DNA of 19,391 nt from Elusimicrobiota bacterium. Its GTDB lineage: Bacteria > Elusimicrobiota > Elusimicrobia > F11. Shown piece by piece: positions 2,940 through 7,897 of this stretch. Numbering within the stretch: position 1 is the first letter of the stretch; the number at the start of each line of letters is the position of its first letter. A program made the position numbers and the translations under genes. Under the pieces are notes generated by a model. The model was given only the letters and a program-made list of their open reading frames with translations. It was not told the origin of the DNA and searched no databases. The DNA lies in assembly GCA_022709485.1 (NCBI GenBank), contig JAKLIS010000002.1, positions 1 to 19,391 on the forward strand. The letters are read 5' to 3'.

Positions 2940-2975
2940 GGGTCAAGTCGCCCGCCGCGGCGGGCGACTTGACCC
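2940..2975. repeat. Perfect 36-bp REP-like palindrome (GGGTCAAGTCGC core)
   Basis: Positions 2940-2957 are the exact reverse complement of 2958-2975. Each outer 12 bases are GGGTCAAGTCGC, the same core as the repeats bounding the RAYT unit at 5594-6819; the inner bases are a GC-only CCGCCG/CGGCGG centre. It ends 23 bases before the start codon of the downstream pseudouridine synthase, so in mRNA it could form a hairpin in the leader. It looks like a trans copy of the RAYT-associated repeat. Confidence 0.85.
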
Positions 2976-3931: not shown

Positions 3932-4560
3932 ACACCTCGTCCACCCCCAAGAAAATGCTGACAAAAGGGCTTCCCGTGGTCATATCAGCTCCGTCCGGGG
4001 CAGGGAAATCAACCGTGGCCTCCCAGGTGGTTCAAAAATATCCTCATAAAATATTATCTATCTCTTGCACCACACGGACCCCTCGGGGAGAGGAAAAAGA
4101 AGGAAAGGACTACTATTTCATCTCTGACAGCGATTTCCAATCAAAGATTAAAACGGGGGATTTTCTTGAATGGGCCGAAGTTCACGGCAAATATTATGGG
4201 ACACCCCGAAAATATCTAGAAGAAAACCTGGAAAAAGGCGTGGATGTGCTCATGGTAATTGATGTTCAAGGCGCGCTTTCTGTTAAGCGGTTTTTTCCTC
4301 AAGGGGTCTATATATTTCTTGTTCCACCCTCGTGGGACGCATTGGAAAATCGGCTCAAAGCCCGGGCCTCGGATGACGCCGGGGCTGTGAAACGTCGATT
4401 GGCCAATGCCCGAAAAGAACTTTCATATTTATCTCATTACGATTATTTGGTTGTTAACGACAATTTAGATAAAGCAGTCGAAGACGTGGGGGCGATTTTG
4501 AGAGCCGAACACGCGCGGCTTTCCCATATCGACAAAAACAAAATTAAAATATTGGAATGA
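3925..4560 (+). CDS. gmk: Guanylate kinase
   Basis: It phosphorylates GMP to GDP with ATP in purine nucleotide metabolism, in the cytoplasm. The 211-residue protein has the P-loop SAPSGAGKST at 21-30, the guanylate-kinase signature SCTTRTPRGEEKEGKDYYF at about 47-65 (GMP-binding loop), and the downstream EWAEVHGKYYGTP segment. ATG 3925 overlaps the pseudouridine synthase stop by 7 bases. A second ATG at 3955 would trim the 10-residue polar leader and is also possible. It overlaps the regulator gene by 4 bases (ATGA), which suggests translational coupling. The common gmk partner rpoZ is not next to it. Confidence 0.96.
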   Translation: MLDTSSTPKKMLTKGLPVVISAPSGAGKSTVASQVVQKYPHKILSISCTTRTPRGEEKEGKDYYFISDSDFQSKIKTGDFLEWAEVHGKYYGTPRKYLEENLEKGVDVLMVIDVQGALSVKRFFPQGVYIFLVPPSWDALENRLKARASDDAGAVKRRLANARKELSYLSHYDYLVVNDNLDKAVEDVGAILRAEHARLSHIDKNKIKILE

Positions 4561-5618
4561 ATATGCGACAACCTTCTGTGGGATCCAGAAAACGAGTTCG
4601 GATGAGGGATGTGGCTCAGCGGTGCGGGGTTTCGATCTCGACGGTGTCATTGGTTTTATCCGGCGACGCGCGGATCCCGGAAGACACCACTCGCAAAGTT
4701 CTTCAAACGGTCAAAGCCATGGAGTATCGGCCGAGCGTGATTGCCCGAAGCCTTGCCCGCCGAATATCTCGAACCATCGGCGTCATCCTCCCCGAATTTG
4801 CCTTTAATAAAAACCAATCTTTTTATTACCAAGCGTTGAAAGGGATTCACAGCGAAACCCAGCCCGCGGGATTTAAGATGGTGGTGGAAGCCACCACGAA
4901 AGGGTTTATCGAGCGGCGTTTTTATTTAAGGCTTCTTAAGGAGCAAAGCGCCGACGCCATTATTTTTTTGACCCCCAGCTTGAATGATCTTTTCTTGAGC
5001 GAAATGGGTAAAGAGAATTATCCTTTTGTTTTGGTGGGCGGAACGGTCCAAGACGCTGACCTGCCTTCTGCAAAGGGGGACGATTTTGCCGGGGGTTTTA
5101 TGGCCACTGAACACCTGATTAAGCAGGGGCACCGAGCCATCGGCCATATCTCGGGCTTTTCCAACTATTACATCGGAGCTGATCGGAAGAGAGGGTATGA
5201 AGAAGCCATGAAAAAAGCCGGCTTGCCCATCGGGCCCGATTGGATTCAAGAAGGCGATTTTGACGTGGATGTGAGCGCCAAGGCCGCTGAACGGCTTGTC
5301 CAGTCCGGGGTCACGGCCATTTTTGCGGGAAGCGATATGATGGCCTATGGAGCGCTCAAGGCTCTTCATGACCTTCAAAAACGGGTTCCCGAAGATATTT
5401 CTCTTGTGGGGATGGACGACCTCGAATTCTCGGCGAATTCACGCCCCGCTTTGACCACGGTGCGGTATGATATTGAAAAGATTTCAGCTCTCGCGGCCAA
5501 TTTCGTCATTAAACAGATTCAGAGCCCCATTATTCCGAAATCTCTCCTCAAAGATGTTCCCGCTCCGGAATTGATTGTCCGCCAAACCACCGCAAGAAGG
5601 GGTCAAGTCGCTACATGA
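4557..5618 (+). CDS. LacI-family transcriptional regulator (C-terminus encoded by a repeat)
   Basis: This is a 353-residue DNA-binding regulator. The helix-turn-helix lies at about 17-36 (MRDVAQRCGVSISTVSLVL). The hinge at 58-70 (YRPSVIARSLARR) is followed by a periplasmic-binding-protein-like effector domain (TIGVILPE onward, with the late segments VPEDISLVGMDD and SRPALTTVRYD). The ATG overlaps the gmk stop as ATGA; a second ATG six bases on (4563) is equally plausible. The last seven residues (RRGQVAT) and the stop codon are read from the left repeat of the RAYT unit, so the native C-terminus was probably replaced. The expected end is near VRQTTA, so function may be intact. The effector and target genes cannot be told from the sequence. 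Confidence 0.94.
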   Translation: MNMRQPSVGSRKRVRMRDVAQRCGVSISTVSLVLSGDARIPEDTTRKVLQTVKAMEYRPSVIARSLARRISRTIGVILPEFAFNKNQSFYYQALKGIHSETQPAGFKMVVEATTKGFIERRFYLRLLKEQSADAIIFLTPSLNDLFLSEMGKENYPFVLVGGTVQDADLPSAKGDDFAGGFMATEHLIKQGHRAIGHISGFSNYYIGADRKRGYEEAMKKAGLPIGPDWIQEGDFDVDVSAKAAERLVQSGVTAIFAGSDMMAYGALKALHDLQKRVPEDISLVGMDDLEFSANSRPALTTVRYDIEKISALAANFVIKQIQSPIIPKSLLKDVPAPELIVRQTTARRGQVAT

Positions 5619-5666
5619 CTCATTTTTGTTCCAAAAATGAGTCATGTAGCGACTTGACCCCTTCTT
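5594..5666. repeat. REP-like hairpin with perfect 35-bp stem and 3-base loop
   Basis: Left arm 5594-5628 and right arm 5632-5666 are perfectly complementary, separated by TTC at 5629-5631. The core is GGGGTCAAGTCGCTACATGA. The hairpin overlaps the last codons of the LacI-type gene and lies just downstream of its stop, so the RNA form could also act as a transcription barrier or mRNA 3'-end stabiliser, although there is no U-run typical of an intrinsic terminator. Confidence 0.92.
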
Positions 5667-5673
5667 CCCCTGC

Positions 5674-5695
5674 TAGCGACTTGACCCCTTCTTCC
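5674..5695. repeat. Partial third copy of the REP-like repeat
   Basis: TAGCGACTTGACCCCTTCTT followed by CC repeats positions 5647-5668 exactly, 27 bases downstream and in the same orientation. It lacks the ATGAGTCATG inner half, so it cannot form the long hairpin alone but could pair with the left arm at 5594. Confidence 0.85.
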
Positions 5696-5802
5696 GTGAT
5701 TTGATAGCCTTTTTCCGTCGAGAAACTCGATTCCGATTCCCTCCATTCTGTCACAAAACCCCTTCTTTCTTTTCCCTCCTATTTTTGTCTCGGAGGTGAT
5801 CT

Positions 5803-6810
5803 ATGTCCCGGCCGTTGCGAATGGAGTATCCAAACGCTTTTTATCATGTCATGAACAGAGGCCTCAATAAATGTCCCATTTTTATTGATGAATATGACCG
5901 TCGCTTACTTCAAAGGACCATTGGCGAAGCGGTGAGTCAGTGGAACATAAAAATCCATGCTTTTTCTCTGATGGCAAACCATTACCACCTTTTGGTCGAA
6001 ACGCCCTTGGCCAACATCAGTCGAGCGATGCGCCATATTGATGGGATTTACACACAGAGGTTCAACCGGGTTCATCGCCGCGACGGCCCTCTTTTTCGCG
6101 GCCGATTTAAATCGATTTTGATCCAAAAGGAAACATATTTTCTCGAATTGATCCGTTACATCCACCTCAACGGAGTGAAGGCCCATGTCGCGCAATCTCC
6201 CGAATTAGATTTGTATTCAAGCCATTACGATTACCTTCATCCTGAAAAAGCGGCCCCGTGGCTGGTCCAGTCAATGACTCTTTCTTATTTCATTTCCTCT
6301 CCAAACCCCCGAGACGAACTTCATCGCTTTGTCTTAAGGGGAATTCCCGACAGCCTGGACAAAATTCTTTCAAATAAAATATGGCCGCCCATTTTGGGGG
6401 AAAAGTCGTTTATTTTGGGAATAAAAGATGAACATCTGACAAACCAACAGAAAAATCCGGAATTACCTCAGAAAAACCATCTTTTGAAGATTCGGAAATT
6501 AAAACCGGAGGAAGTGATTAGCTCCATTTTCGAAGTCTATAATTCGAAGCGAGGCCTAACGAGTGAAGCAAACCTTGTTCGTGAAACGCGATGGGTTAAA
6601 ATTTTCTTCCTTAGACGTTATTCTTCGATGACATTTGCGACGATTGGGAATCTTTTGGGGGGGTTGTCTTATAAATCGGTCCAAGGCTTTTTTAATCGAT
6701 ATGACTTTTCAAATTCTCCTTCATTTTCGATAGTAAAGAAAAACATTAATGAAAAATGGAAGGGGGCGGAGAACCCGCCGGCTAAAAAAATGAGTCATGT
6801 AGCGACTTGA
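5803..6810 (+). CDS. REP-associated tyrosine transposase (RAYT) with DnaA-like C-terminal domain
   Basis: This is a 335-residue Y1/HUH single-strand transposase of the TnpA-REP type. The N-terminus MSRPLRMEYPNAFYHVMNRG is typical of the family. The metal-binding HUH motif is H60-Y61-H62 in MANHYHLLVETP, the fold signature GPLFRGRFK lies at 95-103, and the probable nucleophile is Y119 in RYIHLNGVKA. Residues about 235-300 (helices ending in MTFATIGNLLGGLSYKSVQGFFNR) resemble the DnaA domain IV helix-turn-helix, presumably a DNA-recognition module. The start is supported by a strong GGAGGTGAT six bases before ATG 5803. The last residues (KMSHVAT) and the stop are encoded by the right-hand repeat. 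All catalytic residues are present, so it looks intact. Confidence 0.92.
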   Translation: MSRPLRMEYPNAFYHVMNRGLNKCPIFIDEYDRRLLQRTIGEAVSQWNIKIHAFSLMANHYHLLVETPLANISRAMRHIDGIYTQRFNRVHRRDGPLFRGRFKSILIQKETYFLELIRYIHLNGVKAHVAQSPELDLYSSHYDYLHPEKAAPWLVQSMTLSYFISSPNPRDELHRFVLRGIPDSLDKILSNKIWPPILGEKSFILGIKDEHLTNQQKNPELPQKNHLLKIRKLKPEEVISSIFEVYNSKRGLTSEANLVRETRWVKIFFLRRYSSMTFATIGNLLGGLSYKSVQGFFNRYDFSNSPSFSIVKKNINEKWKGAENPPAKKMSHVAT

Positions 6811-6819
6811 CCCCTTCTT
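6786..6819. repeat. Right-hand REP-like repeat of the RAYT unit
   Basis: It is identical to 5633-5666 and the exact reverse complement of 5594-5627. It encodes the last codons and stop of the RAYT and reaches into the PFK stop codon (TAA at 6820-6818, minus strand). The transposase and PFK genes therefore converge with their ends overlapping inside the repeat. Confidence 0.92.
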
Positions 6820-7897
6820 AATCCCCGAAAGAGGTGCCGACGTCGCGGGCCGTTTGAAGGAGAGGAAAATCCAACGGAATCCGCCGCGGGACCCCAGCCA
6901 CCAAACTCAGATGGACCGATTCAATGGCACTATTTTTTAATGACACCATGTGACCGAATTCACCCGCCGCAGCCAGATGAGCAGCGTGATGACCGTACCG
7001 GGTCGCCAGAACCCGGTCAAACGGGGTGGGCGTCCCGCCTCTCTGCAAATGGCCTAAAACCGTGAAGCGGCATTCGATCCCTGTGTCTTTCTCAATATTT
7101 TCCGCCAGTTGCGCCGAAATGCCGCCCAAATTGTGCGCCTTTTTCATGTATATGGGTGTTTCCCCTTTTCTGTGAGCGCCTTCCGCCACCACAATAATGC
7201 TGAAGCGGCGCCCCTTTTGGAACCGTTTCTGAACCACGGAATAAACTTTCTTAAGGTCATACGGAATTTCCGGGATCAGAATAATGTCCCCGCCGCCCGC
7301 CATACCGGAGTGGAGCGCAATCCAGCCCGCGCTCCGGCCCATCACTTCCACAATCATTACCCGCCGGTGACTGGCGGCGGTGGAATGAAGGCGGTCCACG
7401 GCGAGCGTGGCAATCCAAACGGCGGAATCAAATCCAAAAGTTTGGTCGGTATGCATGACGTCGTTATCAATGGTTTTGGGAACGCCGATGACGGGGATCC
7501 CGCTTTGATGAAGGTGATAGCCCACGGTGAGCGTCCCGTCTCCGCCGACGCAGATGAGGCCTTCCAGTTTGTGTTTACGATAAATTCGAAGGGCGTCTTT
7601 AAGGCGGTTTTGCCCCGGGATAACGCGCTGAGATTCGTTTCTTTTCACGCCGAAAAAATTGTCCTTGTTGGAGGTGCCGAGGATGGTGCCGCCTTGCGTC
7701 AATATATTGGACACGTGATCGTATCCGAGAGGAATGGTTTTATCCATGACGAGGCCGGAGAAGCCGTCCTGAAAACCAATGACCTGCATTCCATAAACGT
7801 TAATGGCGGTTTTGGCCACCGCTCGAATGACCGCATTGAGACCCGGGCAATCCCCACCGCCCGTTAAAATTCCGATCCGTTTAATTTTCTTCTTCAA
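6818..7897 (-). CDS. pfkA: 6-phosphofructokinase (PfkA superfamily)
   Basis: It phosphorylates fructose 6-phosphate to fructose 1,6-bisphosphate in glycolysis. The 359-residue protein has LTGGGDCPGLNAVIR at 11-25, GGDGT at 118-122, PKTIDND at 140-146 (D144 is the catalytic base position) and VMGRSAGW at 185-192. Gly in GGDGT is the ATP-type residue, whereas Lys in PKTIDND is the residue usual in PPi-dependent and actinobacterial ATP enzymes. It therefore belongs to the mixed PFK clade; ATP use is the better guess but is not certain. The start is a TTG at 7897, overlapping the peroxiredoxin stop by 4 bases (TTGA), with GGAG five bases upstream. The stop codon coincides with the edge of the RAYT unit. 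Confidence 0.95.
   Translation of the reverse strand: MKKKIKRIGILTGGGDCPGLNAVIRAVAKTAINVYGMQVIGFQDGFSGLVMDKTIPLGYDHVSNILTQGGTILGTSNKDNFFGVKRNESQRVIPGQNRLKDALRIYRKHKLEGLICVGGDGTLTVGYHLHQSGIPVIGVPKTIDNDVMHTDQTFGFDSAVWIATLAVDRLHSTAASHRRVMIVEVMGRSAGWIALHSGMAGGGDIILIPEIPYDLKKVYSVVQKRFQKGRRFSIIVVAEGAHRKGETPIYMKKAHNLGGISAQLAENIEKDTGIECRFTVLGHLQRGGTPTPFDRVLATRYGHHAAHLAAAGEFGHMVSLKNSAIESVHLSLVAGVPRRIPLDFPLLQTARDVGTSFGD

What the first reader, a model, noticed from the sequence alone, without database searches (positions are those of the whole stretch)
5594..6819. RAYT unit whose REP-like repeats write the stop codons of two different genes
The repeat core TCAAGTCGCTACATGA reads, in the LacI-type gene, as ...QVAT-stop. 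Its reverse complement TCATGTAGCGACTTGA reads, in the transposase gene, as ...HVAT-stop. Both orientations of the palindrome therefore carry an open frame with the same VAT-stop ending. The left copy caps the LacI-type regulator and the right copy caps the RAYT itself. A repeat that supplies a harmless in-frame stop whichever way it lands at a gene's 3' end could spread through gene tails with little cost. The sequence relation is seen directly; the selective idea is inference.
Basis: partly seen in the sequence, partly recalled or inferred. Interest (0 to 1): 0.75.

Follow-up and report, generated by a model that had tools for sequence, protein, structure and literature searches.

The report
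Transposase gene ending inside its repeat
A small bacterial mobile element keeps its transposase gene's stop codon inside its own end repeat, and scattered copies of that repeat sometimes end neighbouring genes too; it is a new example of a known kind of repeat, with one conserved detail worth noting.

Summary
A 34-nt repeat lies at 5594-5627 (inverted), 5633-5666 and 6786-6819. The outer left copy ends a LacI-type gene as RRGQVAT-stop; the right copy ends a Y1 (REP-type) transposase gene as MSHVAT-stop. The genome, an Elusimicrobiota MAG, holds 34 copies of the repeat's edge, most of them in inverted pairs.

The strongest result is the transposase's own ending. In 23 of 69 complete loci of its phylum (window included, 10 families), and in 11 of 29 of a second phylum, the stop codon is exactly the TGA of the repeat motif TGACCC. 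Eight others read past that motif in another frame. The element carries its own stop.

Copies sit beside gene 3' ends far more often than random placement gives, and some write host stops: LacI and a PMT-like gene here, and 6-phosphofructokinase in a related genus, which ends in the same MSHVAT. LacI and PMT-like relatives lack these tails.

REPs that supply stops to flanking genes were already published.

The parts
4557..5618 (+). LacI-type regulator gene; its last 7 codons and stop (AGA AGG GGT CAA GTC GCT ACA TGA) come from the repeat
   Evidence: PF00356, PF13377 and PF00532; codons; relatives end ESCGGNK and the like
5594..5627 (-). left outer repeat arm, inverted relative to the right copy
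   Evidence: exact reverse complement of 5633-5666 and 6786-6819
5633..5666 (+). left inner repeat arm; with 5594-5627 it forms a REPIN-like pair (35-nt arms, 3-nt loop)
5674..5693 (+). partial third arm TAGCGACTTGACCCCTTCTT
5803..6810 (+). Y1 (IS200-like, REP-type) transposase gene; its last six codons and stop lie in the right repeat
   Evidence: PF01797 44.2 bits, above cut-off; NF047646 63.6 bits, below cut-off 80
6786..6819 (+). right terminal repeat arm; its TGA at 6808-6810 is the transposase stop
6818..7897 (-). convergent 6-phosphofructokinase gene; its TAA stop (6818-6820) shares two bases with the right arm
   Evidence: PF00365; geometry; relatives

Best explanation
This is a transposable REP-type unit: a Y1 transposase gene between terminal inverted repeats, with short inverted-pair copies (REPIN-like) spread through the genome as its likely non-autonomous derivatives. 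The transposase reading frame runs into its right terminal repeat and uses that repeat's own TGA (complement of the GGGGTCA edge) as its stop, so the gene stops inside the element wherever the element lands. Host genes are tagged as a side effect: units settle at or just beyond gene 3' ends, where they do least harm, and a unit that lands in the last codons supplies a short new tail and stop in whatever frame it is read. Shown: the anatomy, the recurring stop register in two phyla, placement at gene ends, and tails that relatives lack. Inferred: mobility, selection for a self-contained stop, and selection rather than targeting as the cause of the placement.
For: Stop = TGA of TGACCC in 23 of 69 complete loci of the phylum (own included; 70 read, 1 truncated) and 11 of 29 of a second phylum (30 read, 1 truncated). 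Within 60 nt of the stop only 5 and 2 read past the motif in another frame: 23 of 28 and 11 of 13 against one third expected, naive P 1.5e-7 and 2.1e-4. The 20-mer round the stop has a copy of 16/20 or better elsewhere in the locus in 22 of 23 (20 inverted) against 2 of 115 control 20-mers. In 14 aligned transposases a linker of varying length is followed by a conserved last hexapeptide, V333 invariant. Units with a gene 3' end inside or within 35 nt: 13 of 23 (G000) and 14 of 31 (G002) against 3.9 (sd 1.8) and 5.8 (sd 2.2) for noncoding placement, none of 500 draws reaching them. Tail changes checked against relatives: LacI, PMT-like, phosphofructokinase in G002.
Against: 31 of 69 loci have no TGACCC near the stop and 9 stop before it; in the second phylum 13 of 29 stop before it and 3 lack it. 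The loci are related, so the naive P values overstate the case; inheritance of the register from an ancestor is not excluded. Stops inside units do not exceed noncoding placement (P 0.078 and 0.21). Only one transposase gene was found in this genome and none in G002, which has more repeats. The contigs used were chosen because they hold repeat matches, and genes were called by my own codon score.
Confidence: 0.72

Rival explanations
1. One reading: the repeat spreads through gene tails because it gives a harmless in-frame VAT-stop whichever way it lands.
For: Two host genes in this genome end RRGQVAT; units are enriched at gene 3' ends.
Against: Entry frames of nine host genes are 2/4/3. The G002 family lacks the QVAT stop (ACATGC) yet has 57 edge copies against 34. 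Most facing units lie outside the gene, the stop being native.
Confidence: 0.06
2. Inheritance only: one ancestral transposase happened to stop in its repeat, and the register has simply been inherited, without selection for a stop inside the element.
For: Loci are related; 31 of 69 and 3 of 29 have other endings.
Against: Linker length before the tail varies, yet the TGA frame is kept in 10 families (labels) and a second phylum. Five loci of the second phylum stop at a TAG two codons before the repeat's TGA in the same frame.
Confidence: 0.17
3. Regulation: the repeat at or just after a stop codon folds in the mRNA and tunes expression or termination of the gene it ends, transposase included; placement is selected for that.
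For: Very stable pair hairpin (-41.9 kcal/mol as DNA, z -18). In G002 all 14 facing stops found within 35 nt of a GGGG edge lie within 14 nt of it. A hairpin effect on mRNA was proposed for a MITE at a gene's 3' end in another bacterium (PMC5896051, passages).
Against: The transposase's own right end is a single arm with a weak predicted fold (-2.9 kcal/mol, z -2.5). No expression data.
Confidence: 0.05

Closest known systems
TIRYT / TIRtron class (Di Nocera et al. 2013, PMC3733652; passages and the section on REPs and tyrosine transposases read)
   Same: Y1 transposase gene between inverted repeats that begin GGGG..A, repeats also found as dimers in the genome; the paper's figure legends mark repeats overlapping the transposase gene at its 3' end.
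   Different: Here the edge is GGGGTCAA, one base off the published GGGGWSAS. The fixed register (repeat TGA = gene stop) is not stated in the passages read.
GTAG REPs that provide stops to flanking ORFs (same paper)
   Same: Repeats close to gene 3' ends; repeat termini supply stop codons; some REPs encode C-terminal residues.
   Different: There the TAG of the GTAG terminus is named; here it is a TGA inside the arm, and the same repeat ends its own transposase gene.
RAYT / TnpA-REP units (Nunvar et al. 2010, PMC2817692; passages read)
   Same: Y1 transposase flanked by inverted repeats with dispersed copies; that paper notes REPs very close to or immediately downstream of the rayt stop codon.
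   Different: No GT(A/G)G head at the foot of a GC-rich palindrome; NCBIfam RAYT cut-off missed; the repeat overlaps the stop instead of following it.
REPINs (Bertels and Rainey 2011, PMC3116915; passages read; author names recalled)
   Same: Inverted pairs that fold into one hairpin and behave as a dispersed unit.
   Different: Different phylum and repeat; tens, not hundreds, of copies.
MITEs overlapping gene 3' ends (PMC5896051; passages read)
   Same: Repeat-encoded C-terminal residues of host genes.
   Different: Here the repeat also ends its own transposase gene.

Membership tests
Y1 (IS200-like) transposase superfamily | PF01797 domain above the curated cut-off | tested here: met
   44.2 bits against 23
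Y1 (IS200-like) transposase superfamily | HUH motif and a conserved tyrosine | tested here: met
   H60-Y61-H62 and Y119 are invariant in 14 sequences; that Y119 is the catalytic one is recalled, not tested
RAYT / TnpA-REP | NCBIfam NF047646 cut-off | tested here: not met
   63.6 bits against 80
RAYT / TnpA-REP | gene flanked by two inverted repeats that also occur elsewhere in the genome | tested here: met
RAYT / TnpA-REP | GT(A/G)G head followed by a GC-rich palindrome | tested here: not met
   GTAG is present, but the predicted arm hairpin runs across it instead of starting after it
RAYT / TnpA-REP | the transposase cuts and moves its own repeats | not testable with these tools
   needs a biochemical assay
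TIRYT / TIRtron | terminal inverted repeats with GGGGWSAS | tested here: not met
   GGGGTCAA here, 7 of 8 positions; many relatives' ends read CTGACCCC, which fits
TIRYT / TnpA-REP subclass 2.1 | C-terminal DnaA-like or other HTH domain | tested here: inconclusive
   no such hit in the window protein at E up to 1; PF08299 in P0035 and listed for many homologues
REPIN | two repeat arms in inverted orientation forming one hairpin, dispersed in the genome | tested here: met
   13 of 18 repeat groups are inverted pairs, starts 30-67 nt apart; fold for the window pair

The most novel reading that the evidence does not exclude
The end repeat of this transposase class is a dual-use sequence: one short stretch is both the DNA end that the enzyme recognises and the codons of its conserved C-terminal tail and stop. 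Repeat families could then drift along synonymous paths of that tail (AGT/TCG and GTA/GTC between two genera both keep MSHVAT), and dispersed copies act as portable 'tail plus stop' cassettes that have tagged host enzymes such as phosphofructokinase with the transposase's own C-terminus. Against it: the three G003 copies do not keep the frame, and the palindrome alone explains much of the conserved VAT.
Probability: 0.2. Interest if true: 0.65.

Novelty: new member of a known kind. Interest (0 to 1): 0.42.

Why it matters
It gives a simple, countable rule for a large, little-studied transposase class: in many members the conserved repeat edge GGGGTCA is the complement of the gene's own stop context TGACCCC. 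That helps to annotate these genes and to find their repeats. It also gives clean cases, checked against relatives, in which a dispersed repeat replaced or extended the tail of a housekeeping or regulatory protein.

Tried and rejected
Rejected: enrichment of the VAT-stop frame in host genes (2/4/3). Rejected as sole cause of the shared MSHVAT: coding conservation, because the three G003 copies break or change the frame's peptide. Not conclusive: excess of stops inside units over noncoding placement (P 0.078 and 0.21). No relative of the transposase by sequence among solved structures at E up to 0.01. No Rfam family at gathering score in the four stretches searched. The genome-contig scan found one partial relative.

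Own errors: the filter for stops lying before a unit was wrong, so that list holds only stops inside or beyond a unit; redid it. In one search a crude ORF filter missed loci on the other strand; redid both strands.

Sampling: LacI tails were printed for 55 of 120 listed homologues, one being the window's own. Of the Elusimicrobiota transposase hits, 70 loci were read: the 30 given plus the next 40 listed rows without a locus. In the second phylum the 30 loci given were read; many more rows were listed.

Full report
What is there. The window is contig C112 of a 2.10-Mb, 531-contig genome, 85% complete. It belongs to Elusimicrobiota by inference: a LacI homologue whose longest contig has the length of G002:C126 (77,589 bases), same family as the window's genome, is labelled 'Elusimicrobia bacterium'. 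The 34-nt repeat, its three full copies and both stop codons are as described. The unit spans 5594-6819: an inverted pair and a partial arm on the left, the transposase gene, and a single arm on the right. It sits between a LacI-type gene and a convergent phosphofructokinase gene, whose stop codon shares two bases with the right arm.

The repeat in the genome. GTCAAGTCGCTACATGA with up to 3 mismatches has 33 matches in the genome, and the edge GGGGTCAAGTCGC has 34. Of 18 groups seen, 13 are inverted pairs with starts 30-67 nt apart. The edge has 57, 3, 0 and 0 exact copies in G002, G003, G001 and G023. The degenerate pattern GTNGCNACNTGACCCC was found in 5 of 340 genomes of the phylum: 25 in G000, 57 in G002, 3 in G003 and one each in two others. 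One PF01797 gene was found in this genome.

The transposase ends inside its own repeat, and so do many relatives. Its nearest relatives by sequence end MSHVAT, MGHVAT, MLYVAT, MSDVAT, MSNVEI and the like. Aligned, 14 of them show a linker of varying length and then a conserved last hexapeptide. At DNA level in Elusimicrobiota, of 69 complete loci, 23 (the window's own included) use the TGA of TGACCC as the stop, 6 read past the motif in another frame (one of them 98 nt upstream, doubtful), 9 stop before it and 31 have no such motif near. By the family labels the 23 lie in 10 families. In a second phylum, that of the genome holding L077 (a MAG titled Deltaproteobacteria), the numbers are 11, 2, 13 and 3 of 29 complete loci. 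Five of those 13 stop at a TAG exactly two codons before the repeat's TGA, in the same frame. The sequence round these stops is a true repeat: 22 of 23 have a second copy of 16/20 or better in the locus, 20 of them inverted, against 2 of 115 controls; for the other 46 loci it is 9, against 3 of 230. Of the 120 listed protein hits, 58 end in T and 18 in I, as ACC/ACT or ATC/ATT before TGA would give (the codons of those proteins were not seen).

Host genes. With a home-made gene caller, 13 of 23 units in G000 and 14 of 31 in G002 have a gene 3' end inside or within 35 nt. Random noncoding placement gives 3.9 (sd 1.8) and 5.8 (sd 2.2), and no draw of 500 reached the observed numbers. Stops strictly inside units (4 of 23, 5 of 31) do not clearly exceed it. 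The counts include the transposase's own copy and some lone cores, and the contigs were chosen because they hold repeat matches. Measured from the GGGG edge, 10 of 30 sides in G000 and 14 of 57 in G002 have a facing stop within 35 nt; all 14 in G002 are within 14 nt, 6 of them within 2. Nine host genes run into or through a unit. Two, LacI and a 541-aa PMT-like gene (PF02366), end RRGQVAT. The phosphofructokinase of G002 reads through a whole pair at its tail (GTSFG, then EGKGSSRDMRHEMSHVAT) and stops at the far arm's TGA; the nearest others, in G000, G003 and G006, end GTSFGD, GTSFGDET and VAFGD. LacI relatives end ESCGGNK and similar, none in QVAT (54 others, 20). Nine PMT-like relatives lack the tail too. 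In G002 the LacI stop matches relatives in place, and the GGGG edge of a pair begins 2 nt after it.

Reading. The best-supported account is a self-contained stop. Of the three frames in which a gene can enter the terminal repeat, one meets the TGA, and that frame is used far more often than one third (23 of 28 in one phylum, 11 of 13 in the other, counting only motifs within 60 nt). Shared descent inflates the formal probabilities. Host tagging looks like a by-product: its frames are random (2/4/3), and a repeat family without the QVAT stop has more copies. The VAT on both strands comes from the near-palindrome. A bolder reading, that repeat families drift along synonymous paths of the tail, rests on G000 (ATG AGT CAT GTA GCG ACT TGA) and G002 (ATG TCG CAT GTC GCG ACT TGA) both reading MSHVAT; the three G003 copies read M*LVAT, MFHVAT and M*FVAT and speak against it.

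What is known. Di Nocera et al. 2013 (PMC3733652; [quoted passage not shown] Nunvar et al. 2010 (PMC2817692; passages) note REPs very close to or immediately downstream of the rayt stop. PMC6006769 (passages and one section) suggests that its subclass 2.1, which includes DnaA-like domains, corresponds to the TIR class. I saw no statement of the fixed stop register in those passages or in the listings. That is not proof of absence: figures, supplements and most subscription papers were not seen.

Filing. It works like a RAYT/TIRYT unit. It misses the NCBIfam RAYT cut-off and the GTAG-head test, and the strict GGGGWSAS motif by one base. I therefore call it a Y1 transposase unit closest to TIRYT, not a certified RAYT.

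Noticed in passing
G000 contigs C13, C46, C80, C168, C223, C505 (L033, L035, L037, L038, L040, L043): An IS110-type element (PF01548 in a 202-aa piece cut by the contig end) joins the repeat arm at one fixed point, GACTTGA|TAATCATCTAGG, in six contigs that end or begin in it. Insertion of another IS, ISPpu9, into REPs is reported (PMC8450116, listing only).
   Followed up: partly
window 5594-6819; L185 (G002:C126); L181 (G002:C93); L086 (G001): In G002 LacI and phosphofructokinase lie on different contigs, each with a repeat pair at its 3' end, and LacI is followed by a PF02836 gene, as in G001. In this window the two genes face each other across the unit. This may be a rearrangement between repeats.
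   Followed up: partly
window 2943-2972: A short variant pair with a GC-rich centre lies just before the pseudouridine-synthase-like gene. The same variant on contig C77 (L191) ends a 352-aa gene as RRAT-stop.
   Followed up: no
L111, L123, L130, L207 (other Elusimicrobiota genomes): A different Y1 transposase group ends ...TCAAAAAGGTAG, followed within 7 nt by the start of an inverted CTACCTTTT; the TAG stop lies in that palindrome. It may be the same principle with another repeat.
   Followed up: no
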